The position numbers and the translations under genes were made by a program. From contig OV277866.1 in assembly GCA_922989275.2 (NCBI GenBank), positions 51,761,246 to 51,825,245 on the forward strand: a stretch of DNA of 64,000 bases. The letters run 5' to 3'. Each line of letters starts with the position of its first letter. The stretch's first letter is position 1. Source of the stretch: Gari tellinella. Taxonomy: Eukaryota; Mollusca; Bivalvia; Cardiida; Psammobiidae. The notes under the pieces were generated by a model. The model ran no database searches, had not been told where the DNA came from, and saw only the letters and a list, made by a program, of their open reading frames with translations. This document shows positions 19,830-58,740 of the stretch, one piece after another.

Positions 19830-20898
19830 GATTTGAAAAAGTCCCCAACATATACTCAGCCAAAAAAGAAAGTACCCACTTTTTTTATTCTAACTTATCA
19901 GCGGCTCATACATAAACTGTATTCAAATTATATTTTATAGAAAATAACAGAAATCATGATATCATTGTGGCTAAAAAACTAGCAAGTTGTATTAGAAATA
20001 AAAGGTCTATAACTCTTTTTCCTGAAAACAGCATTTTCGCTTAGAATTCTTTTTTCATAGTAGAGAAACAATTGTAGTCATTTTCAACAGCTAGATCTTT
20101 TTCTTAAAGAAAATAAAATCACATGAGACTTTCATTCATTACAATATTTACGGCGTTATTAAGACTAGAAAGTCATAAAATATCAAATTACCTCCCTTTG
20201 ATATATGGACAAAATGGTGGACGCATGTACTACAGACTCCAAATTCAAGACTTAAGTACCATTTTGAGTGCTTATATCACATTTAAAATGAAATTAAACC
20301 TTTCTTTTTGGTTAACCCAGTCTTTTTAAAGAAAGTGGCATTTTTGAAATCGACCCCTATGTCGTTTCGCTCAATATTTTACATTAAAACATATCGCGTC
20401 GACTTTAATTTTTCACAGAATGTTACTAAGGAATTATTCTTCAATCCAGATAAAAAAAAGTCAAAATATATCCGAGTTCCTAGTATATCGATAGAAATAT
20501 ATGATGGGTACTTTCTTTTTTGGCTGAGTATATATGCAATACTGTCCTTTTCTCCATTATATTGCAATGGCGTTTGCGGTTCGTTTCAAATATAAACGGG
20601 CAAATGAACTTACAATTTGTTTAGGTGCACATCTATACGGATTCCTGTGTGTCTCTGGGACTAGGTCATGTTTAACTTTATTAGCTGGTACAAACAGTGG
20701 TTTGCAATTAGACACGACTAGCGTAAAGTAGATTAAGCATGATTACGCATAATAATTGACCAATCTGAAACGTACAGATTGAAGAAAGTTATTTGCTGAT
20801 TTTGTCTGACCGAGTCTTCCTCAGCCGTAATCAGACTTAACCCTATGCCTGGATATAATTGCGATGTACTTTTCCTGTGTACTTGCTGGAGAATTTAA
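19830..20898. other. AT-rich sequence, nothing recognised
   Basis: Overlapping short open frames at 20123-20731 are of mixed quality and share no recognisable motif. No TIR or hairpin seen. Confidence 0.45.
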
Positions 20899-21141
20899 TT
20901 AACCCTTTCATGCTCAAATAATTCGGGAAAGTTTTACCCCTTCACCGCTTTATTGTCGTCTGATTCAGTATTGTTGTCTGCAAGACACGTTTTAAAGTTA
21001 GATTTAAGGTTGTATGACTTTTAACTATCGATAAGAGTCTCAAATAGTTTGGGTCCTGATCAGACGCCGCGTTCGGCGGCGTCTGATCAGGATCCAAACT
21101 GTTTGCAAACGCGTTTCCAGGCGTCATTGAGAGTTAAGGAT
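20899..21141 (+). mobile_element. MITE-B, full copy
   Basis: TTAACCCTTTCATGCTCAAA to GAGAGTTAAGG. The hairpin arms GGGTCCTGATCAGACGCCG and CGGCGTCTGATCAGGATCC are almost perfect, with a TTC... tip that has lost the usual GTTAC. Confidence 0.9.
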
Positions 21142-21206
21142 AAATAATGGTTATATAAAGACACTGAAGTGTTTGTCCATACAGCAGAATATTTCATGTG
21201 AACTGG

Positions 21207-21261
21207 TAAACAGTGCAGACCTTCATCGTACTCTGGTAATCGGGATCTACACTGTTTGCTA
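21207..21261. repeat. Type J hairpin (degenerate)
   Basis: AAACAGTGCAGACCTTCATC and GGGATCTACACTGTTTGC form the outer arms; the middle no longer pairs. Confidence 0.5.
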
Positions 21262-21342
21262 ATTTGAAACTATACATTACAGTTAAATATCTCTATTACA
21301 ACCATAAAAACGTAGGCTTATACATGTAGACTGGAAAATAAA

Positions 21343-21425
21343 TAGGTGACAGATTAAAGCAATGTGAACGTAAAACAAAAAGCTTCTGAAAGAGCTTTCT
21401 GGTTTACGTTCACCTTGCTTTTACT
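21343..21425. repeat. Core-2 hairpin remnant (MITE-E type)
   Basis: GGTGACAGATTAAAGCAATG, then GAACGTAAAACAAAAAGCTTC pairs with GAGCTTTCTGGTTTACGTTC. The MITE-E ends are missing. Confidence 0.7.
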
Positions 21426-22434
21426 TTCAGAACGTTCTGTGATCGTTATCTACCAAATGGTTCAGAATAGATTCTTCATTGTCTTTCCGAAAATTATCAT
21501 CAACGCTCAAACAGTTTGTATCAATATGAGAAGACACTTTAAACTTTGTCAGCGACTCAGCTGGATCTAAACTGTTGGTAACAAGGATCATACATGTCTC
21601 TGAAGCGTGCAGAAAGTATACCATTATCAAGTTTGTGTTTACCTTGTTTCTGTCACGATTGCCCAAACCAAATACATGAATATTTATTTAAAAAACATAA
21701 AGATAACTATTTAATAACTTGATTCCAAATCAGACGATGGGTTCTGTTTGAAACAAGTTATAATGATTAGCACGCAATGCTTTCTTTAAGTGTACATGTA
21801 TTTGAAAGTGAATCGGACACTTTTTATGTGAACGGGTACAATAAAACAATAGGCAAGGTAAGTATACATTAATTTCAGAGTTATTTTGTTTGCTAATTTA
21901 GTTCGAAACAATCGCAATACTTTTAAGCAGCACGGATCCGGAAATCTCATTGATCACCGATAGCTTTTTACAATTCCATCAATGATGATACGCAAATATA
22001 GTAAATGGTTTAATACATGTACCCGAATTGTTTATAATTGTATTACATTGGTGTCCTGCAATCATCAGATTAACCCATTAATGATAAGAAATTGCATTGA
22101 ACTCTTCCTGTATGATTGCTGTAATATTTCATTATAGATATACGACATTGCAGTGTTAGCACTTTTTGTAAAGTAGTACACAGCTTAGACCTTGGTGGCA
22201 GTATATCACATCATGATCTATGCTGCTTGTTAAGATCTAATTTAGTAGAAAGGGACGTTTAGGGTTTAAAGTTTGGCATTGCTATTCTTGCTGAAAGCGA
22301 CATTTGGTTAAGACATTCAGTGCATAGTTCAAAGTCTGTAATCAGCTAAACTCAAAAGTACAATTAGGTGAGTTAACTTATCAGCCTTGAGCAAATATCA
22401 ATGAAATAAAATGTGATCAATATGTATGTCTGTG
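21426..22434. other. No recognised feature beyond worn hairpins
   Basis: Contains a worn J pair (CAGCTTAGACCTTGG and TGATCTATGCTGCTTG near 22180-22230). No exon, TIR or tandem repeat seen. Confidence 0.5.
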
Positions 22435-22682
22435 TTAACCATTCAGTGCCAGTTTTACGTAATAATCCCCCCAAAACAATCACTACAATTTCGTCGTCTG
22501 TTTGAAGTTTCGTCCATGTTTACTTATGAACAATTAAATTTAATGCGTTTTAGGGTAAGAACTTTGATATAATTATCAAATAGTCTGGACTCTGACCAGA
22601 CGTTGCATTACACAGCGTCTGATTAGGATATATACTTTTTGCCTATGTCAGTGTTGTAGGGCTTGACAGTGGAGGAGTTAAC
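22435..22682 (+). mobile_element. MITE-B2-like, full but worn
   Basis: TTAACCATTCAGTGCC opens, GACAGTGGAGGAGTTAA closes. The hairpin is GACCAGACGTTGCATTACAC with an AGCGTCTGATTAGG arm. Confidence 0.75.
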
Positions 22683-22772
22683 TCATCTTTTAATGGACCA
22701 TTCCAATTTGAAAATAAGTCTAGTCCATTTTTGACTATTTAGGGTTAATTTTAACAATGTATTTCAAAATGA

Positions 22773-22837
22773 CAAACAGTTTATACCCTGATCAGAGGCT
22801 CCTTAAGGAGCCCTCTGATCAGGGCCTACACTGTTTG
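22773..22837. repeat. Type J hairpin, best copy
   Basis: Arms CAAACAGTTTATACCCTGAT and ATCAGGGCCTACACTGTTTG enclose CAGAGGCTCCTTAAGGAGCC. Same length and same outer CAAACAGT...ACTGTTTG boundary as core 1, with a different interior. Confidence 0.8.
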
Positions 22838-22933
22838 CATAAGACAAGTGTACTGCTCACAGGTACACTTTTTGTAAATGACGAGTATACTCTTCGCTAG
22901 GGTTGAATGTGTGAAGTGACGCATATAAATAGT

Positions 22934-23234
22934 ATAGTGGAGAGAAAACGTTATTCTTTATCGTTTAACAAAAGCAAAACTCAAACGCAATTCAAAAATA
23001 TGTGGTCATTGCATTTTTGAAATACAAGTTTTTTCTACAGATTTATTCTTTTTTCGTGTAACAAACAGGTTGGGGCTAAATCAGATGCATATTAATCCAG
23101 CATCTTATCAGGCTAAAAAAATACTCAGAATATAAACTAGTTGTCGAAATTTGCAAAAGCGTTTTGCAATACTTTATAGTATAACATTTGTGATAAAAAG
23201 TGTGTAAACGGAAAGAGATAACAATGCCTCTCCT
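22934..23234 (+). mobile_element. MITE-A relative, strongly diverged
   Basis: ATAGTGGAGAGAAAACGTTATTC opens it; AAACAGGTTGGGGCTAAATC and TTATCAGGCTAAAAAAAT stand where the hairpin should be. GTGTGTAAACGGAAAGAGATAAC precedes the end. Confidence 0.55.
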
Positions 23235-24146
23235 GAATAAAAAAAATACTCACCAAACGCTGTTTGAAAAATCAATGTGTATAATTATATAACTTAATAT
23301 TGGCTTGGTATGTCTATATTTTACAATAAAGTAGTAAACAGATTAGTTTAGTTAACCACTTATTTAGCTCAAATACATTTTTGTAGATTTCACTTAATAT
23401 GAACAAAATGTTTTCCTTTTAATACTTGCTACTATGACCGAATAAATGTTGATACGGATAACAAATCGATTTGGCCATTATCAGCGTACATGTACATGTA
23501 TATATCTTCTACAAGGCCCGATAGCTCATACAAATTTTGCGAAGCGTCAAATGAATCAGCCCCGTCACGTAACTGAAACTCTTGTCCCACTCATGATAAT
23601 AGTTTTGTCACCATATATGCATTATTCACGTACAGTGAGTGTGAACTGAAATGTTGTGAAATGCTAAATTTCTTACTGCTCAAGCACATGCTTATCCGAC
23701 CTCTTAATAAATGTCTAATTATAATAAGATTAGACAGTGGCAGCATACGGTCGGAAAATATACATTTAATCCTTCGGTTGGTTGCTATTACATCATTGGA
23801 TAGCTACAGAAAGGCAGTATATCGGGTTACATGTTGTGAATATTTTGTTTGAACTTGCTGTCTGCTATTTTATGTTATAAGCTTAAAGAAACAATTAAAA
23901 GCAAACGCAATCAGTTATGAACCAATATAGGTTCTGGTTGACACCAGAACAAATGCTACATGTAGCAGCTATAGATCTGGATACATCCCCCACAACAGGA
24001 TTTAACACATTGTTTTATCTTATCTAAGAACTGAAAATACTCATTAAGGCTCTTGTTGACTTATCTATAGTTGTAGCGGATTTTCACCAGAGCATGTAAT
24101 TTGTTTATCGATTATGACTCTAAGGAGTCAGATGGTGACAACAGGC
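23235..24146. other. No recognised feature
   Basis: AT-rich; short open frames at 23446-23852 show no recognisable motif. Confidence 0.45.
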
Positions 24147-24203
24147 ATATCGCTTAGTTACTTATCGGAGCCTCTGGGGCTCTGATAAGTAACTAAACGA
24201 TAT
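24147..24203. repeat. Isolated 57-bp hairpin
   Basis: ATATCGCTTAGTTACTTATC and GATAAGTAACTAAACGATAT pair around GGAGCCTCTGGGGCTC. No similar hairpin was seen elsewhere in the window. Confidence 0.75.
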
Positions 24204-24423
24204 CCCTTACGTATTGCGAAAGGGTCAACGATCGACCAAACGGTGCATTAGTTCTGCTATATTTCGTCCGGTAAATATGATTACGGTTATTCGATAGTAA
24301 TTTGATTACTCGTCTTCACGGCTTCGTGCTCTGAATTAACCAGCATCTCAACGACTTACAGTGATCTAATTTGCAGAGATCACTCGTATCAAAATATTCA
24401 GGAGTGGATTTAAGGTTTCCGAT

Positions 24424-24898
24424 GGTATAAAAAAGAAGTTATTCTTTCCCGTTTGATTAACCCACTAGCCCATAAATACGCCTATTTACGCCTATAATTG
24501 ATTCATCATCTAAAGAAAATATTTCTAATTTGTACAGTCATGGATACATATCATAAGAAATACTTTCTATATTCTAACATAATGATCATTTAAAACAGGC
24601 TGAAAGTAAAACAGAATGTGCCGTAATGTACCTTAAGTGGTCATCTATTTTCAAAACAAGAAACAGACTATGGAATAATGCTTTGATTGAAAACGAAACG
24701 CAAACGCTATGCGATAAAATTATGAAAATATCAAATTTTAAAGGTTTATAAAGCTATATTTTAATCTGAATGGCAAACAGTTAGAAGCCTTATTTAAAGG
24801 CTAGCTTGAATTGCGACTGATCTAGCTCTAAACTGTTTGCAATGAAAACATATTTTTTGCATAAACACGTGTTTTTAGAACACGAATAGTAGAGGTAC
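24424..24898 (+). mobile_element. MITE-A, worn, interrupted by MITE-D
   Basis: GAAGTTATTCTTTCCCGTTT is followed by a MITE-D insert, then AAACGAAACGCAAACGC resumes. The hairpin keeps only its outer arms, with TTATTTAAAGGCTAGC inside. Confidence 0.75.
24457..24688 (+). mobile_element. MITE-D inside MITE-A
   Basis: TTAACCCACTAGCCCATAAA opens it. The core-2 arm AACAGGCTGAAAGTAAAACAG is present, but its partner arm is reduced to GTACCTTAAGTGG. Confidence 0.75.
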
Positions 24899-24950
24899 TC
24901 GTATAAGACGTAGACAATTTGGTGCAATAGATATTGCATATTTCCAATAA

Positions 24951-24983
24951 GTCACTGCTTCGGTTCGAATCCCGACCGGACTA
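24951..24983 (+). other. tRNA T-arm-like sequence (box B)
   Basis: GGTTCGAATCC at 24962-24972 is an exact RNA polymerase III box B. No clear box A or cloverleaf lies upstream, so this is more likely the relic of a tRNA-derived SINE than a tRNA gene. Confidence 0.35.
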
Positions 24984-25090
24984 TTTACATTGTATACCTT
25001 TTGGTAACCATTTACACTTTTATGCCAATTCTGGTTTTCAATCTCTTTATAAATGGGTTATATGCGTTTTACGTCTTTAATATTTACATT

Positions 25091-25350
25091 CGCCCCATTC
25101 AATTCCATTGACAAAAAGGGTGTTCATTTCGTATAAACACCATTTCTCGAGAGGGCGGGACTTGTGGAGAAGTTTGGAATAGGAGGCGGGGCATATGCAG
25201 TTTTCCTTCGCGAATTAATCTTTGGAACTTGGGACAGCAAACATTTGGCGGGTTTTATCAAAATTTATTTCTTAACCGATCTATGCCTTCCTATTAGTGG
25301 AAACCATAATTCCCGACTAATAGTCTTCTTTATTAATGAGATAAATTGCA
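25091..25350 (+). repeat. Type L repeat, copy 2
   Basis: Inverse copy of 10539-10783. Shared words include TCGAGAGGGCGGGACTTGTG, GGAGGCGGGGCATATGCA and TTCGCGAATTAATCTTTGG. Confidence 0.8.
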
Positions 25351-26440
25351 ATATAATTGACATACCTTATACACAACAACTGTCTGCATTCCTTTATGCC
25401 ATAAAACACGATATATTTATCCTACTTTAAAAATGACGTCACTTCCTATGATATCAAATCGTCCTTTTCGCGCCAAATTGTCAAAGTTGTTGGTCTAAGA
25501 ATGTAAACAATGGAACTAATTGTTTTGCTTTGGAATGTACACAGCTCCAGTAATTCGGTCATGGCTGTTCCTTGTAGGTAACACATTATTCGTGTTATCA
25601 ACCTCTTATATGGATTAAACATACATGCATACTTACAAACCTTAAAATGATATTAGAAATTACAGCAAATACTTTGTAAATATAAAAAATGAACAGATGT
25701 TTTTCGGCGTTCAAGCGAAATGAAAGCAAAGCAGAATTCGCCTTCAGACGCATTCCGATATACTTTCATTATTTTTGTCACCTATATTATTCAAAGTACT
25801 TGAGAGTACTAATGACGGTTTCAAACTGAAATAAGTAGTATGGAATGAAAGGAAACTCTGAAAACAAACAGTATTTCTTTTTAAATGTGTTTGATAGTAT
25901 TTTTTTAAACTTACAAGTTGTAACATTGAATAATACAGTAAAGACCTGAAAAACGTATTTGTCCTAAACCGTATCATAAAGCATGTGAATATTAGTTCAG
26001 GCATATTAGGAAATTATCTATTTATATGGCTTTTAAATGTCATTAAAAACCTCGAGGAAACTTTGTCAACAGCCGTGAAATCATCAGGCATCAGTGTCGC
26101 ACATTTCAAGTCACTTTCCTAGTCCCAAAATTATTGGCACACAAATCAAAGTCAAAGTAGATTCTACCGATTTTATGGTCATCATATTAACTTACGATGT
26201 AATGTTTATTCACAATAATTTTATTATTTTGAATCGTCTCACTGTTTCATCTCATGCAGTTCTCAAAATTAATCCAGTTTTCGTTTTTGTGGAACCGATA
26301 TTATTGAAGATAATGAGTGTTGTTTTCTTGAGCGGGTGTGTACCGGTACTGAGTCAAGGTTTTGGAAACGCGACGCTGACTATAGAGATTTGAAACCATC
26401 AACAACTAGAAAGAGGCTACGGAGTTGGAGATAAGTGTGA
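25351..26440. other. No firm feature; left flank of the Naiad element
   Basis: Includes an open frame at 26094-26393 with no recognised motif. Naiads often carry tandem or inverted partial copies at their left side, but I cannot place a boundary here. Confidence 0.4.
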
Positions 26441-26616
26441 GGTTGGGCGCCCCTAAACCCAGGTTTAACCCCCCAGTGGTTGTTAATAATTAATTAATTT
26501 ATAGTTAATTATTGATTGCTACTGACCGTACCAAGGCGATCTCCTATATTCACTTTGCTTTATGTTTGTCTTGCGTGTTGTTTTCTATTTAGTGTGTAGA
26601 TGAAGGAATGGTATTG

Positions 26617-26668
26617 CGTGTGTGTGTGTGTGTGTGTGTGTTTGTTGTGGTATGACTGTGTGTGTGTG
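26617..26668. repeat. TG microsatellite
   Basis: Two GTGTGT runs separated by TTTGTTGTGGTATGAC. Naiad-type elements are known to favour microsatellite targets, but here the tract lies within the presumed leader. Confidence 0.85.
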
Positions 26669-26947
26669 TTCTGCTTGAGAGGTGGGTGTATTGTTTGTGT
26701 TACGTTTCCTGCTTGAGTCTTTCGTATTTATTTGTTGCCACAATAGTGTTACTTGTGCCGTGTGGAGGCCGTAAAACGTCGCCCCGTACATTTAATCAAT
26801 ATTGTTATCATTCCTCCTGCAGGAGCGTACACTTGTTGTACAACTCGTCTCTTTGGCTTTCTTTCTTGCACCGTATGGTAGGTCTCTATGTACCGATGGT
26901 CAGATGAGCTTCGGTATTGTACCGGTTCTTCACTAACTCTTTACTAC

Positions 26948-27118
26948 TTACATTAACCATTTTCAATCTTTACATTTTCCAATTGGAATTACTTTATAAT
27001 AAATTTCGAACTTTCTTTCTATAGAGTTATAATTACATTAACTATTTTCATTCTTTACATTTTTCAAATTGGAATTACTTTATAATAAATGTCAAACTTT
27101 CAATCTGTAGAGTTATAC
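26948..27118 (+). repeat. 85-bp tandem duplication
   Basis: Two copies of a unit ending GGAATTACTTTATAATAAAT...AGAGTTATA, roughly 90% alike by eye. Confidence 0.8.
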
Positions 27119-27158
27119 TCGATACATAGGGACAGGTGCTTACTTGCTTCTCTTAATT

Positions 27159-30117
27159 ATGGAACTACAAACAAACAAAAGACTAAAAATCCCCCTTACA
27201 CCACTTAGAATGCACTCTGCGTGTTCTGTTCATATCCCTAGAAATACTACTAATTTTGTATCACTACAGCCGTCCGTACAATTATCACCACTTAAGCTCT
27301 ATTCGGCATCTTCTTTTCACATTCCATCTCTTTCTATTAATAATTGTTTTCATAATGGTCCAAAAGTAGTGCTTTCACCTCTAAAATATTCTATTCAACG
27401 CAATAATTCTGTTTTATTACGACCATTGAACAAAAAACGTAGAGTGCATCCTATTATTGAAAAGTGCAATGCTAAGAGGTGAGCGTGTTGCAATTTTTTA
27501 TCTTGCAAGTCTACTATACAATCAACAGTAAACGGTAGATTATTTAGTGTTGTCATAGATTCAGACATCAACTGACGAACTAATCATGTTATATACGTGT
27601 TAACTTGAAAAGCACCAGGTTGTGGTATCCAGTATGTTGGGCAAACCGGTCGTCCCCTCAAAATTAGGTTTAATGAACATCTTCGTACTTGTTGAAACAA
27701 AAAACTGAGGAACTTTCTGTATCAACATTTTCGGAAATCTGGACATGGATTAGATTTTATTTCAATTCAACCTGTCGAACATATTACGTATGATCAAAAT
27801 GCTACTAATAGTTTCAAATGTAAGGCTAGATTTATAACGGAATTAAAATGGATTAAAAATTTACAGACACCCTTTCCTTTAGGCTTGAATGATAATATAT
27901 ACCAATCTGGCAATATTTCTAAAGAACCTTCAATTGATATTTTTTCGATTTATTCTAAACGAAACCGTAACTCTAGATCGCATGGTATTCGTATAAATGG
28001 TAATATTTAACGTAAATCACGTCAGTCGATTTCTATTAAAGATTTGCATAATCAGCTGTTACATTCTGGTAAACATAAAATGCTTCTCGGCTTTCTTCGT
28101 TGTCATTGACGTCTTTAAGAGATATTGACGACAAGGCTGATAATATAATTTTACGCACAGATCCTCTGTATTATACTGCAGGTTTAATACAAAGTTATAC
28201 TCAGCATATTCTCAGACTGCATATTGATTCTTTAAACGATCACAAAAGATTTTTCATTAAGGTCCCTTTTATAAATAAAGGTATTGATTTTATAGATTTA
28301 CAAAGTATTCTCCGAAACAAAAATGTGATGAATGCTGTTCCAAATTATTTTAAAAATCTTGAACCACCTATTATTTGCTATAAGTATAATAAATCTGTAA
28401 GAGGGTTAATTTTTAACTACAATAAAATTGTTTTTGATCTTAAAATTCTCGAAAATACACCAGCTACATGAGATTGTACCTCTTCTAAATTCTGTTACGC
28501 CCCAGTGGGTCACATAATAACAGTCAATTTTCATATCATTAAAGATAAACGCATCAGAGCGCTTTTGAGTAAGGGACCTAAATTTAGATTACCTGCCTTA
28601 ATTGATTTCGATACTTGCCGTAATCATATTTCGGAAGCTTTGAATAATTATAGTACCAACTGGTGCCGAAGAGATCATGCTGAAAATGACGCTCTTTCAA
28701 AATGGAAAGAATTAATTTTTGATATTATCGATATCCGGATTTCGTTCTATTTATCCAATAACCATCTTTTACCACCTAAACCTAAATTTAACATTCGTCA
28801 CTAAAAGAAGGGCATACAAGACTTTCAGTCCAAGTATGTACTCGTTCCTGCCGACAAAGCATCCAATAATGTGATAATTGTATGACGATTACATTATGTT
28901 GATGCTTTAAACCAGGAACTTGTGAATACCAATTCCTATATATCTACCAATTTAACGGAGCGTAATGTAGTATCTGATCATCTTGATACATGTAAACAAT
29001 TAAAAGCTTATGTCAACATTACATGTCACAAACTTCCTACAATGTACTGGATACCAAAACTCCACAAAACACCTTATAAGTCTCGTTTTATTGCTAATTC
29101 AAGTGCATGTACTACTACTAAGCTTTCCAAACTTTTAACATCGTCTTTAATTAAAATCAAAGAACATGTTCAAAGGTATTGTGATAAGACTTACGAAAAT
29201 TCTGGACTTAATCTGTTTTGGTCTATCAAAAACTCTAATGAAATTTTGGCAAAGCTTGAATATAGAAAATACCAAGCTTGCAATATAAGTACGTATGACT
29301 TTTCAACACTATATACTACCTTACCTCATAATCTAATAAAAGCTAAACTTATACAACTTATTGAAAAGACTTTTGCCAGAGAAAGGAAGCTATTTCTGGC
29401 GTGTAATACTGATCGTGCATTTTTTACAAATGACACGGTTAAGCATTACACTATGTGGACTTGCACCGATGTCTGTGAGTCACTAACATTTCTTCTGGAT
29501 AATATTTATGTACGTTTTGGGAGTACCATATACCGCCAAGTGATTGGTATTCCTATGGGTACAAACTGTGCGCCCCTTGTCGCAGACCTATTTTTGTACT
29601 GTTATTAGAGGGACTTTATGCTTAGTCTAAAACCTGATACACAGGCAGATATGATCGAAGCCTTTAACAATACATCGCGCTATCTAGATGATATTTTTAA
29701 TATAGACAGCCCATTTTTTGATACGTTGTTCCCTTTTATTTACCCAAAAGAACTACGCCTTAATAAAACAAACGAGTCAAATTTGTCGGCACCATTTTTA
29801 GATTTTGATCTTTTTATAAATAACGGAATTGTTTCTTCTAAGATTTATGATAAACGAGATGATTTTGATTTTAGTATTGTAAATTATCCTCATCTAGATG
29901 GCGATGTTACCCGTTCCACATCTTACGGGGTTTATATTTCACTACTTATTCGCTTTGCTAGGGCCTGTACCTCTGTTGAGGACTTCCACATTCGTAATAA
30001 AACTATTACTGAAAAGCTTCTTAAACAGGGGTACAGATTTCATAAACTTCGTAAAACATTTTCTAAATTCTTTTATAGAAATCTTCCTCTCATTAACAAG
30101 TATAAATGTAACTTAAG
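27159..30117 (+). pseudogene. Naiad-type Penelope-like element ORF (N-terminal GIY-YIG endonuclease + reverse transcriptase), multi-TGA
   Basis: One ORF read from ATG 27159. Order: N-terminal extension; GIY-YIG endonuclease with CGIQYVGQTGRPLKIRFNEH (27621-27680); linker UDCTSSKFCYAPVGH (28469); reverse transcriptase with YWIPKLHK (about 29045), DFSTLYTTLP (about 29297), IPMGTNCAPL (about 29549) and YLDD (29681-29692); thumb region to NKYKCNL. Endonuclease before RT is the permuted order of the Naiad clade, opposite to canonical Penelope. The frame holds six in-frame TGA codons, at 27480, 27573, 27606, 27693, 28469 and 28883, each where relatives carry Cys as far as I can recall, so they probably encoded selenocysteine. 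True damage is TAA at 28008, a one-base frameshift near 28100, TAA at 28802 and TAG at 29606. A MITE-C truncates the 3' end at about 30118, so any SECIS element is lost. This copy is dead. Confidence 0.9.
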
Positions 30118-30319
30118 CGATATCGTCTGCTGAAAATTGTCGTCTGCTGTTTTTCTCAAAGTTACGTAATGGACATTTTGAAATAAAAAAGACTAAATGT
30201 CGAGTAACAAACGGCTTGAATCCAGATCAGATGCCAATTTCCCTCCCCATAACGACTTCCTCTGAACAACGCACACATTTTGTCTCCCATCGGGTGCCTT
30301 TGTAGAGAGGGGGCGCTGT
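30118..30319 (+). mobile_element. MITE-C, 5'-truncated, joined to Naiad 3' end
   Basis: ATCGTCTGCTGAAAATTGTC begins inside the C left half, followed by CTCAAAGTTACGTAATGGAC, one hairpin arm (GAATCCAGATCAGATGCC) and the intact right end GAGAGGGGGCGCTGTA. The other arm is deleted. Confidence 0.85.
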
Positions 30320-30367
30320 AAATGGTATACTTTCTGTAGTCTGAAATAGGGTTGTTGTCTGTCCCGC

Positions 30368-30557
30368 ATACCAAAATCGTAAACGTCTAAAGCAATCCAT
30401 CAAATGGAAGCATAATCGAATGCAGGACATTACTTGATTGCTGGTCGAGAAATACTATCTCTACAGCCAGAGGAGCTGTCCGTTTCATGGTCTTTTACAG
30501 ACGCTCGCAATATCCGGGTCTCGTTAGAAAGATCGATTACAGCTGTTCGCTGGCCAG
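30368..30557 (-). repeat. Duplicated exon-like sequence, copy 1
   Basis: The minus strand reads AVIDLSNETRILRASVKDHE then TDSSSGCRDSISRPAIK and a stop. The same peptide, slightly changed, is read from 33007-33123. No splice sites were established. Not recognised as a known domain. Confidence 0.5.
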
Positions 30558-30589
30558 ATGATTTGGAGTTCTTAAGATTTTACGTCGCT

Positions 30590-30845
30590 TTAAATAACCA
30601 TTTGCCTTATAGATGCGCCTTTTAGCGCATTCAGTTTAAGCCTCCGCTGAAGAAAAAGTTCCAATTTATACAGACATGAATATGTATCATAAGGGTTTTT
30701 TATTCTATCAGGTAGTAGCTTAAAGCAGGCTGAAAGTAAAGCAGATTGTGCCTTTAGGCACATTTTGCTTTACTTCCAACTTGCTTTAAGTAGTCACCTA
30801 TTTTCAAATCTAGATGGAGCCTATTGGGTACACGTAAAAGGTTAA
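30590..30845 (+). mobile_element. MITE-D, full copy
   Basis: CCTCCGCTGAAGAAAAAGTTCC precedes a long core-2 hairpin: TTAAAGCAGGCTGAAAGTAA pairs with TTACTTCCAACTTGCTTTAA around GTGCCTTTAGGCAC. It ends GTAAAAGGTTAAC. Confidence 0.85.
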
Positions 30846-31203
30846 CAGTAGTTCAGTCATATCGCAACGCCTTGCTAATTACAGGTCATTTACAATGTAT
30901 GTACAGTTGCATGCATACATCGGAAACTGGGTAGACCGACCTACCGCAAGCCAGCTAGAAGGCTTCACCACATGAAAACCCCGAAGTTCCAAGACATTGA
31001 TTCAGTCCCGAGCGGTGATGAGCTTGGTGTTTGAAAGTCACAGTGACTATAACCACTGCTGGTCAGTAGTAATGTCATTGTAGGTTAGTATACTCCTTGA
31101 TGGTCCGAATGCACTGGTTTGTCTTAAGTCAATTTCATCACAAGAATACTAAAAGCATTCAACAATTTCAACACTTTCGGTGCCAAAGTAATCGTGATAT
31201 TGT
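30846..31203. other. No recognised feature
   Basis: Mixed sequence between a MITE-D and a MITE-B; no motif recognised. Confidence 0.5.
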
Positions 31204-31397
31204 TTTACCCTTTCGCCGCTTTATTGTCGTCTGCTTCAATATTGTTTATTAGAAGATCGTTACAATGTAGGATTCAATGTAGTATGACTTAAGAAATATC
31301 GATACGAGTTTCAAACAGTTTGGATCCTGAACAGACGTCGCGTCAAAATCAGGATCCAAACTGTTTTGAAAGTCGACTTTATGCGATGTCGGGTTAA
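31204..31397 (+). mobile_element. MITE-B, hairpin tip deleted
   Basis: TTACCCTTTCGCCGCTTTATTG opens, GATGTCGGGTTAAGG closes. The arms GGATCCTGAACAGACG and AATCAGGATCC are joined by CGCGTCAA. Confidence 0.8.
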
Positions 31398-31562
31398 GGA
31401 TTGTGATACATGGTGGGTCACAGCGTTCTGAATATATTTGAGATTATTAGACTACCTTTCATCTTACGGGTACATGTAATCGCCATCATTATTAATTTCC
31501 ATGGCGAAAGAAGGTAACGTATGAAACCGACATGCAAAAAAAAACTAGCAGTCAAATGACGT

Positions 31563-31690
31563 CAAAAGAGTTATAAAACTTCTGAGTTCAGTCTAAGATG
31601 TTTCTCAAAAGCTCAAATCTGACCAATCAGATGATTGAGAACAAATTAGGACCCAACTCAAAAGTTTATAGCCCTTGACCTAGAACTGTG
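31563..31690. repeat. Type K palindromic repeat
   Basis: AGAGTTATAAAACTTCTGAGTTC at the left and AACTCAAAAGTTTATAGCC at the right; ACCAATCAGATGATTGAGAA in the middle. Confidence 0.75.
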
Positions 31691-31861
31691 TGGTAGCATT
31701 ACGACAACCAAATGGGATGGGCATAAATCAAACAAGTCCGTATATGTCATCAACTTTATTCATCAGGCACCATCAAATTGACCTTTATCGCTATAAATGG
31801 GTCTTTACCGGCATGATGCAAACAATTTGGAACGTATAAATATCCTGGAACCCGGGCTCTA

Positions 31862-31992
31862 GTTTATAAAGCTTTTGAGTTGAGTCTGAGGTCGTTCTCA
31901 AGCATTTGATTGGTTAGATTTGAGCCTAGGCTCAAATCTGACCAATCAATTGCCTGAGAACAGTCTCAAACTCAAGTCATACTCTTTATAAC
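31862..31992. mobile_element. Type K palindrome, best copy
   Basis: TTTATAAAGCTTTTGAGTTG and CAAACTCAAGTCATACTCTTTATAA (in part) are outer arms. The centre GATTTGAGCCTAGGCTCAAATC is a perfect palindrome (31918-31939). Confidence 0.85.
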
Positions 31993-32012
31993 CTTTGGGG
32001 CTGATCTCGATC

Positions 32013-32912
32013 TTAAGGGGGTAGGTGCACCTTGGTAAAGTAAATACCAAATTCTTCAAACTTTGCATATTGATAGTAAAATTAGTTTCTATGACAAAAC
32101 TGGTGAAAAAGTGGGGGTACCGGACATTTCTTTTTCACAATTTGAGATTTTTCAAGGCTACCCCCCTAAAATTGAAGCTTCATAAAAACTCCTACTTTTT
32201 TGTACTACGGTTTTTCAATCTTTATTTAAACAATCTATTTGTACCAAAAGTATCCTAATTTATATTACCATAGTAAGAATAAACCCTGAAAATAATGTTT
32301 TTTTAAGATCCAAAATAAAAATATTTGATTTCACCAGAAAGGAGTAAAATTTACCCCACCCACTTTTTTATAATGGGAGAATAAGGCACTGTGAAAATTG
32401 CCCTACAAATTGTAGCAAACTAAATACCAAATTTTTTATTTGTTGTTTTTAGCCTTGCAAACAAAAGGTTTTAGTGAAATAGCAAATAAAAACACAGGGT
32501 CCCGTACCGTTTAAAAAAGATATAGATCATTTTATCTAAAAAATCCATTTTTCTCATATTTTCAATTTTTTGTGTACTTTTACCAAAAATATTTTTTTTC
32601 CAAAAAATTTCATTTTATCGATTGAGTTATCTATAATTTATACTAAAACTGTACTACATGCTTATATTCTGAGAAATTGAAATGAAATCGGATGTAACAA
32701 AATACAACCTACCTATGAAAACAGTGTATGCTGTTAACTACGAATAGGAAAAAGTCCCTTCCGGAACGAAAATCCAATTTTTTCCCGGGAAAATAGTGTT
32801 TTATTACTGTATGCATTCACCAAAAATGAGTTCTTACCATTTTTTGGAAAACCAGTTCGTAAAATGTTTCGGAAATTTCATAATGCTCAAAAAGACAGGC
32901 CGACATCCTTAA
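32013..32912. mobile_element. TTAA-ended AT-rich element (tentative)
   Basis: About 900 bp starting TTAAGGGGGTAGG and ending with the inverse of TTAAGGATGTCGG, which agree at 10 of 13 positions. The inside is AT-rich with no domain. TTAA targeting would suggest a piggyBac-type non-autonomous element, but only the ends support this. Confidence 0.4.
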
Positions 32913-32968
32913 CTGTTTGCATTGTATTTGGGCAAAGTAATAGCATCACTATATCTCGTTGTGTTTCC

Positions 32969-33123
32969 AGAGTACCAAACCCGTACACGACTAGATAAAA
33001 GCAATCCTGGTCGACAAATCCTATCTCTACAGTCAGAAGAGCTGTCAGTTTCATGGTCTTTTATAGACGCTCGCAATATCCGGGTCTCGTTAGAAAGATC
33101 GATGACAGTTGCTCGCCGGCCAG
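32969..33123 (-). repeat. Duplicated exon-like sequence, copy 2
   Basis: The minus strand reads ATVIDLSNETRILRASIKDH, then ETDSSSDCRDRICRPGLLLS and onward to RVRVWYSGNTTRYSDAI. Copy 1 lies 2.6 kb to the left, in the same orientation. The frame is open for 73 codons. Confidence 0.5.
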
Positions 33124-33569
33124 GAGTCATTATATTGTAGGTTTGTTATCACATAGATAGTGTTATAAGAAAATCCTTATTTAACATGTCTTCAATTGCA
33201 CAATTGTTTCGATTACAGTGTAACTGAAATCTGGCATTTGCTAATACATCCCGACTAAATCTCAGGTACTGCTGCACTAAATAGCTGGAAATGCTTCCGC
33301 GGAATAATCAAACGAAGTCTCTGGAGAAATAATTCCATTTTGTCATGAAACTGTCACTGTCCAGTGCTTTTTTATGTAATATATGGAGGCCTCAGAATAG
33401 ATGAAAAGTATTTCTATGATAATAGATGGGGTTTATGGTGAAATCATGTGGGCAGAAGCGACATGTCCCTCTTAAGCCAATGTTTATGGAAAGGAGGGTA
33501 AGTTTGGTTTTACAGCACCACGACACCAAATATGCAATATAGCGCCGACCGGTGTTCATGTCAAAAGGT
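33124..33569. other. No recognised feature
   Basis: Non-repetitive by eye; TTATTCTATGATAATAGATGGG-type AT-rich sequence with no element ends. Confidence 0.45.
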
Positions 33570-34129
33570 ACAGTGCCCCCTCTCTCCAACGACAACCAAT
33601 GGGGGGTAGTGTGTACGGTGTTTGGAGGGAGTCGTTATAGAGAGGAAACTTTGCTTACATTTGCAAACAACGGCGTCTGACCTGGATATTCAAGCTGTTT
33701 GTGTCTTGTCATTTTTTCTGTCAAAATGTCCAGTATGTAAGAAAAACAGCAGACAACAATTTTAAGCAGACGATATTACAGCAGTGTAAGCGTTAGACAT
33801 AATTGTATTGGGCACATCCTCAAGCGTCGTTGTACAGTGGAGAATCTGTTATTCTTTCCCGTTTAAACGCAAACGTACGCAAACGCAAAGCACTAACACG
33901 TAGAAAAGAACAACTTTTGGACAATTCTGATAATTCTTGTTTATCTTTGTGGCAAACAGTTTGGAGCCTGATCAGACGCCGGGTTACCCGGCGTCTGATC
34001 TGGCTCCAAACTGTTTGCACTGCAAATAATAGTTTTAGCGTAAACGCGTTTATTGGGAAAGAATAACAGATTCTCCACTGTATGGAGGGAGTCGTTGTTG
34101 GGAGGGCCGTTGTAAAGAGTGAGTATTGT
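33570..34129 (-). mobile_element. MITE-C, full, inverted, interrupted by MITE-A
   Basis: ACAGTGCCCCCTCTCTCC opens the reversed element; one hairpin arm is shortened to CAACGGCGTCTGACC. GGGAGGGCCGTTGTAAAGAG lies near its other end. A MITE-A splits it at TA. Confidence 0.85.
33834..34081 (+). mobile_element. MITE-A inside MITE-C
   Basis: Near-consensus copy. Rejoining the flanks (GTCGTTGTA and TGGAGGGAG) restores the C sequence with one TA, which shows a 2-bp TA target duplication. Confidence 0.95.
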
Positions 34130-34344
34130 AGTAAATACCAGTTATACCAATGCATCTACGAGATTGCTCTTATTTTCAATATTACACCCCGTTTTCTAGG
34201 GTAGAGACACCAAATAGTCGGAGCTGTTTCCGTGGTATTGTCAAAAGAATCCTCCGAGAAATAATTTCAAACGTTTGTTCCTCAGAATAGCATCAAATGT
34301 GTCAATCCGGATATGTTTATTCTTTTGGGTTCATTTCATGTAAT

Positions 34345-34697
34345 ACAGCGCTCCCTCCCAACAACGGTTTTCCCAACAACGACTCCCTCCTTGCAACAAC
34401 CATTGCCGCTGTTCCCCCAAACAATACATTTAGGTTCAACATTTCCATTTCTGCAATACCGTCTGCTTAAATTTGTCGTCTGCTGTTTTTCTCAAAGTTA
34501 CATGTAAGTGGACATTTTGATAGAACAAATATAATGACGAGTGACAAACAGCTTGAATCCAGATCCGACGACGAGTTACGCGGGGTCTGATCTGGATTCA
34601 AGCTGTTTTCAAATGTAAGCCAAATCTGTTTTCACTCCGAACAACACACACAATTGGTGTTTCCCGTTGGGTGTCTTTGAGAGAGAGAGAGAGCACT
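34345..34697 (+). mobile_element. MITE-C, full copy
   Basis: ACAGCGCTCCCTCCCAACAA to GAGAGAGAGCACTGT. The hairpin arms are CTTGAATCCAGATCCGACG and GGTCTGATCTGGATTCAAG. The right subterminal part has gained a GA microsatellite. Confidence 0.9.
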
Positions 34698-34941
34698 GTA
34701 CATGGAGACCAGAGAATTCATACAAAAGCATTTCTGTCATTAAAGACTGGGTTTACGGACAAATTGTATGAACTGAAGTGACATGTAGCATCCTTGGTTT
34801 GGATGGTGCCTATCTCAAAATGTAGCAGAACAGCAGTCATGTCACTGACGCCATGAGACTTTTCTTAGATGCCATGTACCCCTGCTTTCTCTGCACTTGT
34901 CAATTGTACATGCATATATTGGAAAATACAGAGTAGCATGT

Positions 34942-35189
34942 ACAGTGGAGAAAACGCTATTCTTTCCCAATAAACGCGTTTACGCTAAAACTATTATTTA
35001 CTGTGCAAACAGTTTGGAGCCAGATCAGACGCCGGGTAACCCGGCGTCTGATCAGGCTCCAAACTGTTTGCCACCAAGATAAACAAGAATTATCAGAATT
35101 GTCCAAAAGTTGTTTTTTTCTACGTTTTAGTGCTTTGCGTTTGCGTACGTTCGCGTTTAAACGGGAAAGAATAACAGATTCTCCACTGT
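34942..35189 (-). mobile_element. MITE-A, full copy, inverted
   Basis: Intact TIRs, TA flanks and core. Flanks show no long duplication. Confidence 0.9.
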
Positions 35190-35316
35190 ATTATATGTTT
35201 GGAATAAAAAATGTCAATTTTGAACTTGCGCATTAAATGTGAATTATATAAGGGAGCCGAATAAGTGGCCCATGTTCTTCTCTGTCTTTTTCAATCAATT
35301 ATGCGTGAATCTACTG

Positions 35317-35564
35317 TTAACCCTTTCACTCTAAATGACGCTTAAAATCGCGTTTGCAAACATTTTTTATCCTGATCAGACGCCGCGTCAGGAGGCGTCT
35401 GATCATGATCCAAACTGTTTGACATTCGTTTTGAAATTTCTTCAGTAATACTGTCCTTTTTTTTTAGCTTTGAAACAAAATTGCAGACAACAAAATTGAA
35501 GCAGACGACAATGAAACGATGGAGGGGTAAAACTCTCACAGAATATTTGGCAGTGAAAGGGTTG
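35317..35564 (-). mobile_element. MITE-B, full, inverted
   Basis: TTAACCCTTTCACTCTAAAT to GGCAGTGAAAGGGTTGA. Hairpin arms TATCCTGATCAGACGCCGCG and GGAGGCGTCTGATCATGATCC. Confidence 0.9.
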
Positions 35565-35689
35565 AGTCAAATATAGCTTGGCACCTGTGAACGGATAAAT
35601 ATTTGTAATTCTGAACTTACATAAATAATATGGCGCAGCTTAATTGCAGTTGTTGTTGTTGTTGGCATCCTTCAGTCAGTATTTACTAT

Positions 35690-36480
35690 GGATTTGATTT
35701 TACTTCTCTGATCTGGTGGCTGAACAGTCCGATGCAGGAATGGCAGTCTCTTTTACAGGTGACACACGGATAGATAGACTATGTTGTGTATCTGTTGCAG
35801 TTTTCTTTTCAGCGGGTCCGTTTGTCTTCTGCTAATCTGATCAGGTTTTCCTCACCTGACACCAGCTGTTTAGCTTCTCCACTTTGGTCGGTCAGCATCA
35901 ATATCTTCCCAGTGTTCGCTGTCAATCTCTAGGGCATTTATGTCCCTCGTACAGACATCTCTGTAGCAACCAGTGTCTCTTTTCCCGGATGCAAGTTCCC
36001 CATAGAGGATGTCTTTGGATTTTATGTCGTCCTCCATACGACGAACATGACCTAGCCAATGGAGTCTACGCTGTCTAAAGCCCCGATCTCACTGTCCCCG
36101 TTTAGGTCCCCGGTGAGTCCCTGTTAAGCAAACCGGCAGTCACCGGGAGTACAATTAGATTAAACACAGTGTTGAGGCCTGCGCGTGACAAAATATCAGT
36201 ATTTGGCACTTTGTCCTGCCAAGAGATGCCTAGGATGCGACGGATGCCCCTCATGTGTAATGTGTTTAGTCTCTGTTCTTGCTTAGCGTAGGTCGTCCAT
36301 GTCTCACACCTATATAGTAGTGTGCTGACGACGCAGGCGTTATACTCTACCATCGTTGTTTTAACGGAGAACGGAGTTCTCACACACGCGTGCGATGAGC
36401 CGAGCAAAGCTGGTTGCTGCTTTCCCATTTCTCTTACCTTTCTCTTTATCAAGAGTGAGGATACTGCTTGCCGTCGACCC
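35690..36480 (-). mobile_element. LINE C-terminal fragment
   Basis: The minus strand at 36102-36452 reads STLLYRCETWTTYAKQEQRL, then NTLHMRGIRRILGISWQDKV and PNTDILSRAG, the region after the RT in a common invertebrate LINE group. After about 80 bp of foreign sequence (about 36077-36160, CCGGTGAGTCCCTGTTAAGC with CACCGGG) it continues RRLHWLGHVRRMEDDIKSKD, ILYGELASGKRDTG and YRDVCTRDINALEID at 35880-36075. In-frame stops follow. No RT core remains; the upstream end meets a MITE-C fragment. Confidence 0.8.
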
Positions 36481-41640: not shown

Positions 41641-44264
41641 ATTTATTTATTTATTTACATTTAAGGTCGACTGCATAATACAACACATGTAACAAATTTA
41701 AATATATCACAGCAATAAATAAGAAATTTAGTTAAGTTATAGAATATTGACTAAAAGAAAGCTAATAAGAATAAAATTTTGCGTACTTTTGATAAACTGA
41801 TTACTTAAAAGGATAATGTGTGTTGAATTAGTAAATTACCTGCAGAGGGCCTATGGACAACCCATTTATGCTAAAAGCTTATTTCCAATGGGGTCCAACT
41901 TATCTAGACTAAAACTACTAAAAAAAGAAACTAATTAAGCCAAATATTTAGGTACAAAACGGGATTATTCAAAGTATGCATTCATTTACTGCATCATATC
42001 ACATATAAATATATCACTGAGGATTAAGCAAATTATCACAGATACACATTCAGATTACTCTTCACAGTGCAGAATTTTTGAAATGGACTCTTCCATTTTC
42101 GAACAGTTCCCACTTTACATAAATTCAGAAATATAATATTTCAAATATTGGCAAACAGGGGTGACTCATTTCAAAGGGTTCATTCACTGTCCCTCTTAAA
42201 TGGGTCTACACTGTTTGTAAAAAATGTATAAACCGTTTCCAGCAATGAGAGTGTTAATAATATAGAAAGTCACTTTTGCTCTCTAAGACTTGCACATCAA
42301 GTAGGTGCTTCTTAACTAACTGTTTGAATTTGCTGATGTTTTTGACACCTTTAATGTAATCCGGAAGAGAATTCCAGTCTCTTGATCCAGTATATAAAAA
42401 AGTATGTTTACTTAAATTGTTACTGACACTAGGTAACATAAAGTTATTTTGGCTAGAACCCCTAGAACTTTTTACAAAGTTTTCCAATAGATATGAAGGA
42501 CAAGTTTTACGATGGAATGAATGCATGTGACTAAGTCTAAGCTGTTTAGCTCTGTTGTCAACTCTCAACATATTCAAATGCACATAGTCTTGCCAAGTGA
42601 TGGATTCTCTTGGAGAATACCCTTGAATAAATCTTATAAACTTGTTCTGCACCACATGGAGCTTATGTTTTAACCCCTTATTTAGACCTTCATACCAAGC
42701 TGAACTACAGTAGTCAAAATGACACTGCAGAAGTGCGGAGCATAAAAGTTTACCTGTGTTAAAATCCAAACATTTGTTTTGTCTGTATAAAAATTTAAGT
42801 TTGCCATTAATCTTGGATATATTTTGCTGTACTATAGCTTCACCTGACAAAACTTGTCTAAAGAAAGACCTAGGTACTTTACTTGCTTAGTACTTTTTAT
42901 GGTATGACCATTACAGGTAACATGTGTGGATCCTTGCTTACTTAAATTGCGCTTTGGACCAAAAAGAATGTATTCTGTTTTCCCTAACCACTCAGAGCAG
43001 TTTTCTAAAAAATGACCAAGTTTGACTGGAATACAGGCAGGGTCCTGATGGCTAAACAATATTGTGCTGTCATCAGCATACAAAATGAGTTTGCAGTCCT
43101 TATCAATGCTAGTAACCATGTCGTTCACGTAGCAGAGAAAAAGAAAAGATCCTTATATGCTACCCTGTGGTACTCCGCGAGTGACTTGAAGAGCATTTGA
43201 CATAGTTTTGCCAATGCTGACAACTTGGTTCCTATCAGATAAGTAGGACTTAAACCATGGTATTGACCGAATGCCCATTAATTCCAATTTACCATACAGA
43301 GTTTCATGATTAACTGTATCAAATGCCTTCTGTAGGTCTAACATTATCACCCAGTACATGTATACAAGCCTTTTGAAGAATTCCATTTAATAGTGTCAAG
43401 CAAATGAATTAGGCAACTATCTGTAGAGTAAGATTTTCTAAAACCTGATTGGTAATCGTATATAATATTGTTAGTTACTAAGTAAGACTCAAGCTGTGTA
43501 TAGACAGCCCGCTCTAAGATTTTTGAGACGATACTTAAGATGCTCACAGGTCTAACATTACCTACTTCCAGGGTACTGTCTTTCTTGTGTAAAGGTTTAA
43601 CGCTGGCTTGCTTAAAGTCTTCAGGAACAACACCTTCAGGAATTGATGAATTGATAATAAAAGTAATTGGAAGCTTAAAGGCATCTGCACAATCTCTCAA
43701 AAACCTAGCAGGCATGCCATCTAAACCAGTACTATTACTAACATTCAAGCTGCTCAGCTCCCTAAGCACATAACTCTCTGAAACATGCTTCAAATGCAGT
43801 TCTTTATTATTAGGGTTTTCGTCTTTGTAGTATTTAGACAAATGATCTGAATTTAGATCAAATTTGTGTTTCTGACAAGGAAGTTTGTTTACCAGAACTG
43901 AGGCAATACTAGTAAAAATGTTATTGAAGTAATTAAAATGTTCAAAGTGTCATGACAAATGGCATTGTCAACTGTTAGGACAACATTCTGGCTATCCTGT
44001 TTAGTGTTTTGTAACCAAGTGATTTCAAACTCTGCCAAAGCTTTTTAGGTTCAAATTTATTCTCTTCAACTTTACTTAAAAAGTATTCAGACTTTGCAGT
44101 CTCAATATGTCTCTGCACTAAATTTCTGTAATTCAAATAATGCTTATAGTCCTCTCTGTTACCATGCTTTTTAAAGCTACGCAGGTAAGTATCCCGTGAC
44201 TTTATGTTCTCTACGATTTCTGAATTTAGCCAGGGTTCTGTCTTAGATTTTAGTCGAATTCCTT
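41641..44264 (-). mobile_element. CR1/jockey-group LINE, 5' truncated, decayed RT
   Basis: From 44260 leftward the minus strand reads a linker (KTEPWLNSEIVENIKSRDTY), then an RT: GLDGMPARFLRDCADAFKLP (about 43720), KPLHKKDSTLEVGNVRPVSI (about 43580), YQSGFRKSYSTDSCL (about 43430), LDLQKAFDTVNHETL (about 43310), GVPQGSI (about 43165), LILYADDSTI (about 43080) and the tail LLQCHFDYCSSAWYEGLNKG (about 42740). Catalytic YADD is intact, but a frameshift lies near 43380, a TAA near 43150 and another shift near 42840. The coding part ends at about 42254. AT-rich sequence runs to a TAAATAAATAAA tail at 41641-41660, as expected for CR1/L2-type 3' ends. The 5' end is cut by a MITE-A. Confidence 0.88.
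42152..42217. repeat. Type J hairpin remnant
   Basis: CAAACAGGGGTGACTC and GGGTCTACACTGTTTG form the ends; the middle no longer pairs. It lies in the 3' untranslated part of the LINE, so it was inserted after or carried by it. Confidence 0.5.
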
Positions 44265-58736: not shown

Positions 58737-58740
58737 ATGT

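What the first reader, a model, noticed from the sequence alone, without database searches (positions are those of the whole stretch)
27159..30117. Naiad retroelement whose in-frame stops are mainly TGA at cysteine positions: a multi-selenocysteine ORF
The frame from ATG 27159 is interrupted by six TGA codons (27480, 27573, 27606, 27693, 28469, 28883) but only two TAA and one TAG. Each TGA stands where related endonuclease/RT proteins carry Cys, for example before ACC, in DIN-x-RTNHVIYVLT-x-KAPGC and in VIV-x-RLHY. Random decay would not target Cys columns. Clam and spider Naiads are known to have evolved multi-Sec selenoproteins, so this copy likely descends from such a lineage.
Basis: partly seen in the sequence, partly recalled or inferred. 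Interest (0 to 1): 0.9.

Follow-up and report, generated by a model that had tools for sequence, protein, structure and literature searches.

The report
Jumping gene with five selenocysteine codons
A damaged copy of a jumping gene carries five UGA stop codons that its sister copies in the same genome share at positions where related enzymes have cysteine, so the family likely makes an enzyme with five selenocysteines, and one of these positions appears to have switched between cysteine and selenocysteine many times.

Summary
The window carries a decayed copy of a Naiad-type (endonuclease-first) Penelope-like retrotransposon. Five of its six in-frame TGAs (27480, 27573, 27606, 28469, 28883) lie in Cys columns; the sixth (27693), two TAAs and one TAG do not. 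Reading 27 other copies from the same 1.6-Gb genome: TGA stands at the five columns in 27, 27, 27, 26 and 27 of 27, while the other four stops and a frameshift near 28085 are private to the window. Twelve of 23 copies have a 1065-codon frame broken only by these five TGAs and closed by TAG. A SECIS-like hairpin begins inside that stop (Rfam SECIS_1, 7 of 7 copies scanned, below the curated cut-off; core intact in 25 of 27). Fixed differences between two subfamilies are mostly silent (ratio 0.13), also behind the last TGA. The window copy lost its last 79 codons and the SECIS at 30116. Multi-selenocysteine Naiads of clams and spiders are already published (recalled; paper not held). What seems new: among relatives the RT-site state changes twice, but the CxC-site switches between stop and Cys at least 15 times, and loss-only (Dollo) evolution is rejected.

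The parts
26427..26734 (+). 5' terminal repeat (pseudo-LTR-like); in sister copies it occurs again behind the SECIS
   Evidence: second match downstream of the ORF in 7 of 7 copies (L004-L010)
26948..27117 (+). two tandem 86-base units just before the ORF
   Evidence: period 86, 2.0 copies, 89% matches; also in sister copies
27159..28085 (+). first part of the broken ORF: N-terminal region and GIY-YIG endonuclease
27585..27740 (+). GIY-YIG endonuclease domain
   Evidence: PF01541, 20.3 bits (cut-off 22.6), E 6.8e-4; relative P0123 28.8 bits
27480..27482 (+). TGA, predicted Sec codon 1 (codon 108)
   Evidence: TGA in 27 of 27 copies; Cys in 3 of 3 relatives
27573..27575 (+). TGA, predicted Sec codon 2 (codon 139)
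   Evidence: 27 of 27 copies; relatives Cys 3, Trp 1
27606..27608 (+). TGA, predicted Sec codon 3 (codon 150)
   Evidence: 27 of 27 copies; relatives Cys 2, Trp 1
27693..27695 (+). TGA, private decay, not a Cys column
   Evidence: sense codon (Arg) in 27 of 27 copies
28008..28010 (+). TAA, private decay
   Evidence: sense codon in 27 of 27 copies
28085..30116 (+). second part of the broken ORF in a shifted frame: CxC linker and reverse transcriptase; cut off at 30116
28469..28471 (+). TGA, predicted Sec codon 4 (codon 438), first Cys of the CxC motif
   Evidence: 26 of 27 copies; relatives Cys 55, Trp 14, others 4; 46 of 124 relatives end exactly before it
28802..28804 (+). TAA, private decay
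   Evidence: sense codon in 27 of 27 copies
28883..28885 (+). TGA, predicted Sec codon 5 (codon 576), in the RT
   Evidence: 27 of 27 copies; relatives Cys 18, Trp 14; 54 of 124 relatives end exactly before it
29606..29608 (+). TAG, private decay
   Evidence: sense codon in 27 of 27 copies
30117..30165 (+). start of an unrelated repeat at which the element is cut; the last 79 codons and the SECIS are missing from the window
   Evidence: copies at 34453 direct and 33740 inverted

Best explanation
The window holds a decayed copy of a Naiad-type Penelope-like retrotransposon whose sister copies carry five in-frame TGA codons at Cys columns of an endonuclease-reverse transcriptase frame closed by TAG, and these TGAs are likely read as selenocysteine with the help of a predicted SECIS hairpin that begins inside that TAG. 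Shown here: the five TGAs are shared by the copies, the frame behind them has been kept by purifying selection, and the hairpin motif sits at the same place in the copies. Inferred: ribosomes insert Sec at all five UGAs with the host's ordinary Sec machinery; Sec stands in for Cys at metal-binding or redox-sensitive sites of the endonuclease, the CxC linker and the RT; the element moves by target-primed reverse transcription. The window copy itself should be dead: four private stops, a frameshift, and a lost 3' end with the SECIS.
For: TGA at the five columns in 27, 27, 27, 26, 27 of 27 other copies, while the other four stops and the frameshift are private to the window. 13 of 23 copies have 1065 codons without TAA/TAG, 12 of them with exactly these five TGAs, all 13 ending in TAG. 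Differences fixed between two subfamilies: 39.3 synonymous, 18.7 non-synonymous, per-site ratio 0.13; behind the last TGA 17 and 7. Rfam SECIS_1 at one place behind the ORF in 7 of 7 copies, starting inside the stop codon; core intact in 25 of 27. Among 124 relatives, 54 end exactly before 28883 and 46 exactly before 28469. A distant relative, L001, has TGC/TGT in all five columns.
Against: SECIS_1 scores 22.7-30.2 bits, below the curated 35, and the hairpin is not unusually stable (z -1.46; 16 of 200 shuffles as stable). Inside subfamily A the ratio is 0.65 and in short segments around 1, as young copies would show. 10 of 23 copies are broken. No protein, selenium or ribosome data. TGA 27480 has no Sec-type support outside this genome's family (relative P0121 has Cys there).
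Confidence: 0.93

Rival explanations
1. Ordinary pseudogene: the TGAs are random decay that happens to hit Cys codons.
For: The window copy does have four private stops, a frameshift and a truncation; 10 of 23 sister copies are broken.
Against: The five TGAs are shared by 26 or 27 of 27 copies, the frame behind them is under purifying selection, and relatives end at the same columns.
Confidence: 0.02
2. The host reads UGA as a standard amino acid (Cys or Trp) throughout its genome.
For: Some database proteins show Trp at the sites, which is best read as a gene call under TGA=Trp (inference).
Against: The window frame uses TGC/TGT 28 times. Conserved Cys columns other than the Sec sites are hardly ever interrupted: one of 124 relatives, P0199, ends before 28616, and single Trps stand at 28475, 28616 and 29474. 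A SECIS motif sits behind the stop.
Confidence: 0.01
3. The UGAs are read through by ordinary near-cognate tRNAs at low level, without Sec, to regulate how much full-length protein is made; the SECIS match is fortuitous.
For: The SECIS match is below the curated cut-off and only moderately stable.
Against: Five readthrough events in a row would leave almost no product; the sites are Cys columns; AUGA, AA and GAU are in register in 25 of 27 copies.
Confidence: 0.04

Closest known systems
Naiad N-terminal-EN Penelope-like elements with several selenocysteines in clams and spiders (Craig et al. 2021, doi 10.1093/molbev/msab225; abstract recalled, paper not held, reference seen)
   Same: EN before RT, CxC linker, terminal repeats and tandem copies, no hammerhead found, several UGAs at Cys positions.
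   Different: I could not compare which sites are Sec there, nor whether this family is already in that paper. SECIS overlapping the stop codon and repeated switching at the CxC site are described here from my calls; whether they are in that paper is unknown to me.
Selenoprotein P (abstract start seen in the listing, PMC5133445)
   Same: Many UGAs in one frame served by SECIS elements at the 3' end.
   Different: Selenoprotein P has ten UGAs and two SECIS elements and is a plasma protein; here five UGAs, one SECIS found per element, overlapping the stop, in a mobile RT gene.
Canonical Penelope-like elements (PMC11167929, passages seen)
   Same: GIY-YIG endonuclease with telomerase-like RT, pseudo-LTRs, tandem copies.
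   Different: There the endonuclease is C-terminal and a hammerhead ribozyme is present; here the endonuclease comes first and no hammerhead was found.

Membership tests
Naiad / N-terminal EN+ Penelope-like element (defining features recalled) | GIY-YIG endonuclease N-terminal to the RT | tested here: met
   Order seen; GIY-YIG in the window piece 20.3 bits, slightly below the cut-off 22.6; relative P0123 28.8 bits, above it.
Naiad / N-terminal EN+ Penelope-like element (defining features recalled) | Telomerase-like RT | tested here: met
   Foldseek of the P0123 model (pLDDT 78.9): the first 14 PDB matches are telomerases, E 2e-10 to 1e-6, TM-scores low (0.25-0.45). The window's own RT part has no Pfam match at E 1.
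Naiad / N-terminal EN+ Penelope-like element (defining features recalled) | CxC motif in the linker | tested here: met
   UGA-Asp-Cys at 28469-28477; relatives Cys 55 and Trp 14 of 73 at the first position and Cys 71 of 73 at the second.
Naiad / N-terminal EN+ Penelope-like element (defining features recalled) | Pseudo-LTRs and tandem copies | tested here: met
   Terminal repeat 26427-26734 again downstream in 7 of 7 copies; L005 and L009 have a second SECIS upstream from a partial tandem copy.
Naiad / N-terminal EN+ Penelope-like element (defining features recalled) | No hammerhead ribozyme | tested here: met
   None at gathering score in the window nor up to E 10 in 7 copies.
Naiad / N-terminal EN+ Penelope-like element (defining features recalled) | CCHH zinc-finger motif of the endonuclease | tested here: inconclusive
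   Predicted Sec 27606, Cys 27621 and nearby His are present by eye; no structure-based test.
Naiad / N-terminal EN+ Penelope-like element (defining features recalled) | Branching with named Naiad references in an RT tree | not testable with these tools
   Database relatives carry no element names and the reference paper is not held.
Eukaryotic selenoprotein gene | In-frame UGA aligned with Cys in homologues | tested here: met
   five columns.
Eukaryotic selenoprotein gene | SECIS element at the 3' end of the transcript | tested here: met
   Rfam SECIS_1 in 7 of 7 copies, but below the gathering score; core intact in 25 of 27. Not met in the window copy itself, whose 3' end is lost.
Eukaryotic selenoprotein gene | Coding constraint behind the UGA | tested here: met
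   Fixed differences 17 synonymous to 7 non-synonymous behind the last UGA.
Eukaryotic selenoprotein gene | Selenocysteine present in the protein | not testable with these tools
   Needs protein or reporter data.

The most novel reading that the evidence does not exclude
Selenocysteine in this family breaks Dollo's rule. One Sec site in the RT (28883) is almost fixed and acts as an anchor that keeps the SECIS under selection; with the SECIS always in place, the first Cys of the CxC motif (28469) is free to become Sec again and again by single-base changes. Across the family it has switched at least 15 times, with repeated Cys-to-Sec gains, which makes a mobile element a natural laboratory for Cys/Sec exchange.
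Probability: 0.55. Interest if true: 0.78.

Novelty: new member of a known kind. Interest (0 to 1): 0.62.

Why it matters
It points to a mobile reverse transcriptase that very likely depends on selenium, with several apparently intact, young copies in one genome. In print, parallel Sec gain and back-and-forth Sec/Cys change at one position are called extremely rare and Sec is assumed to follow Dollo's behaviour, because the SECIS decays once Sec is gone (PMC2375036, passages); 12 conversions to Cys were counted along the vertebrates (PMC3316567, passages). A second, fixed Sec site that keeps the SECIS would be a way round that rule, and about a hundred labelled relatives give natural replicates for asking what Sec does that Cys does not.

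Tried and rejected
Random decay (chance model; copies) and genome-wide recoding of UGA were tested and rejected. A SECIS in the window was sought with a home-made scanner, Rfam (one search covered 20000-36000) and exact 16-mers of the SECIS of a sister copy: none convincing. My first pattern for the SECIS of the copies was too strict (2 of 27) and the script stopped with an error; one search replaced it and matches 26 of 27, but in L021 the quartet in register is changed, so I count 25 intact. DNA of Sec-type relatives was sought in viral contigs, plasmids and phages: no relative; genome contigs gave the Cys-type L001 and an edge fragment, L002. The lost C-terminal end was sought in the whole window with nine relatives: not found. 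Pairing database proteins by equal contig length gave 13 pairs where 1.9 were expected by chance: indirect support only. A search of the host genome for diverged families, to see the CxC switching in DNA, was asked 15 times and never answered. In one search the bootstrap trees had no branch lengths and nothing was fitted; one search repeated the test with equal branch lengths.

Full report
OBSERVATION. The reading frame is not continuous: relatives P0126 and P0153 align in one frame up to 28085 and in another from 28085 on. Homology to RT relatives runs to about 30115, 79 codons before the end found in the sister copies. What follows from 30117 is a repeat found again at 34453 and, inverted, at 33740. 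The missing C-terminal part was not found elsewhere in the window.

RELATIVES. A search with the RT half gave 4903 proteins, of which the best 120 were listed and used. Searches with the N-terminal part and the middle part gave 5 and 214 proteins; the 5 and the best 120 were listed, 124 distinct ones. Composition at the stop columns over these 244 proteins: 27480 Cys 3 of 3; 27573 Cys 3, Trp 1; 27606 Cys 2, Trp 1; 28469 Cys 55, Trp 14, others 4; 28883 Cys 18, Trp 14; but 27693 Arg 21, Lys 13, others 18 and no Cys; 28008 Lys/Arg 106 of 108; 28802 Leu 81 of 88; 29606 Glu 122 of 123. The Trp cases are best read as gene calls under a code with TGA=Trp (inference). Database proteins stop at these very columns: of the 124, 54 end exactly before 28883 and 46 exactly before 28469; the other 24 end at scattered places, one of them (P0199) before the conserved Cys column 28616. 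Single Trps stand at the Cys columns 28475, 28616 and 29474; these may be decay or rare extra Sec sites. The closest relative of the middle part, P0153 (about 88% identical), ends exactly before 28469. Of the 120 RT-half relatives, 94 start behind the 28883 column. Contig L001, filed under a Planctomycetota MAG and probably a eukaryote contaminant, encodes an element about 34% identical in its RT, with TGC/TGT in all five columns.

SISTER COPIES. The genome search answered once: the window lies in an assembly of 1.6 Gb in 80 contigs, and 44 matches to the element were reported, a lower bound (40 of 2203 candidates scored). I read 27 other copies, 95.2 to 98.5% identical. TGA stands at 27480, 27573, 27606 and 28883 in 27 of 27 and at 28469 in 26 of 27 (one TGG). 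At 27693, 28008, 28802 and 29606 all 27 have sense codons, and none has the window's frameshift, though several have indels of their own. In 23 of the 27 the start lies in the match; 13 of these have a frame of 1065 codons without TAA or TAG, 12 with exactly the five TGAs and one with a sixth; 10 are broken. The tail of 79 codons followed by TAG is intact in 23 of 27.

SELECTION. The 13 open copies form two subfamilies (8 and 5). Fixed differences between them are 39.3 synonymous and 18.7 non-synonymous, a per-site ratio of 0.13; behind the last TGA 17 and 7; in codons 151-575, 17.3 and 8.7; in codons 1-150, 5 and 3. Within subfamily A the ratio is 0.65 and within B 0.35 (in some short segments about 1), as expected of young copies that drift after insertion. 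The protein behind all five UGAs has therefore been selected as protein.

SECIS. Rfam SECIS_1 matches at one place behind the ORF in 7 of 7 copies scanned, at 22.7 to 30.2 bits, below the curated cut-off of 35. AUGA quartet, unpaired As and GAU are in register. Helix I begins with the last two bases of the TAG stop. Of 27 copies, 25 keep the core intact; L015 has a deletion and L021 a changed quartet. The fold has -16.8 kcal/mol, z -1.46, with 16 of 200 shuffles as stable, so the case rests on motifs and position, not on stability. L005 and L009 have a second SECIS match upstream; in L005 it belongs to a partial tandem copy. The window has none.

WHAT IT IS. Endonuclease before RT, a CxC linker, a telomerase-like RT fold in the model of relative P0123, terminal repeats and no hammerhead match fit the Naiad group of Penelope-like elements as I recall it. 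That Naiads of clams and spiders became multi-Sec selenoproteins is recalled from the abstract of Craig et al. 2021; the paper is not held. Library searches that combined Naiad or Penelope-like with selenocysteine terms listed no other paper on it (listings only). So the element is a new member, perhaps even a published one, of a known kind. The contig lengths shown, up to C19 with 44 Mb, would suit an animal with about 19 chromosomes, such as a venerid-like clam (recalled, untested).

SWITCHING. I labelled each relative as Sec-type (protein ends exactly at the column, starts behind it, or has Trp) or Cys-type at two columns and counted changes on trees built without these columns. RT column 28883: 100 Sec, 18 Cys, 6 unclear; 2 changes. 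CxC column 28469: quick tree of 115 rows, 54 Sec, 53 Cys, 8 unclear, 23 changes; careful tree of 108 rows (7 long-branch rows dropped), 53 Sec, 50 Cys, 5 unclear, 21 changes, at least 15 of them forced by well supported branches. 18 of 54 Sec-type rows have a Cys-type row as nearest neighbour; the closest such pair is 94% identical. A two-way model has lnL -59.9, loss-only -68.6 at its best rooting, gain-only -61.2. With equal branch lengths, loss-only is worse by 9.2 to 20.2 in 60 of 60 bootstrap trees tested (of 1000), gain-only by 0.3 to 8.2. So loss-only, Dollo-like evolution is rejected; that changes go both ways is likely but not shown. Weaknesses: states come from protein records, not DNA, in which a stop is seen but not its kind; recombination between elements could mimic switching; in this genome's own family the site is TGA in 26 of 27 copies. 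My request to see diverged families of this genome as DNA did not complete.

MECHANISM. I propose that the RT Sec, nearly fixed, keeps the SECIS under selection; the CxC Cys codon can then become UGA and turn back by one base without the usual barrier of evolving a new SECIS. This would be an escape from the rule set out in PMC2375036 (passages read).

VERDICT. The window copy is dead and without SECIS, but copies with a full five-UGA frame and a SECIS motif exist in the same genome.

Noticed in passing
window 33952-34018, 34544-34610, 35005-35071, 35356-35422 and about 31312-31371: Dispersed near-perfect palindromic hairpins of about 67 bases, and a 250-base inverted repeat (33833-34082 with 34941-35190, 96% complementary) around two of them.
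   Followed up: no
window 30117-30190 with 34453-34577 and 33740-33776 (inverted): A repeat begins exactly where the element is cut off; it probably inserted into, or joined, the element and removed its 3' end.
   Followed up: partly
window 43347-43841, minus strand: ORF of 164 aa with a weak reverse transcriptase match (RVT_1, 26.9 bits, cut-off 29.6), a second retroelement remnant.
   Followed up: no
window 58262-58737: Tandem repeat of about 248 bases, 1.9 copies.
   Followed up: no
L004 4697-4763 and the other sister copies: The SECIS motif overlaps the TAG stop codon, so stop and recoding signal share bases; I could not check whether this is known for other selenoproteins.
   Followed up: partly
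L001 2063-4856; protein P0101: Penelope-like elements lie in contigs filed as bacterial MAGs (a Planctomycetota; a Thiodiazotropha clam symbiont): probably host or eukaryote contamination.
   Followed up: no
window column 28616 in relatives P0199 and P0203: One relative ends exactly before this conserved Cys column and another has Trp there: chance decay or a rare further Sec site.
   Followed up: no
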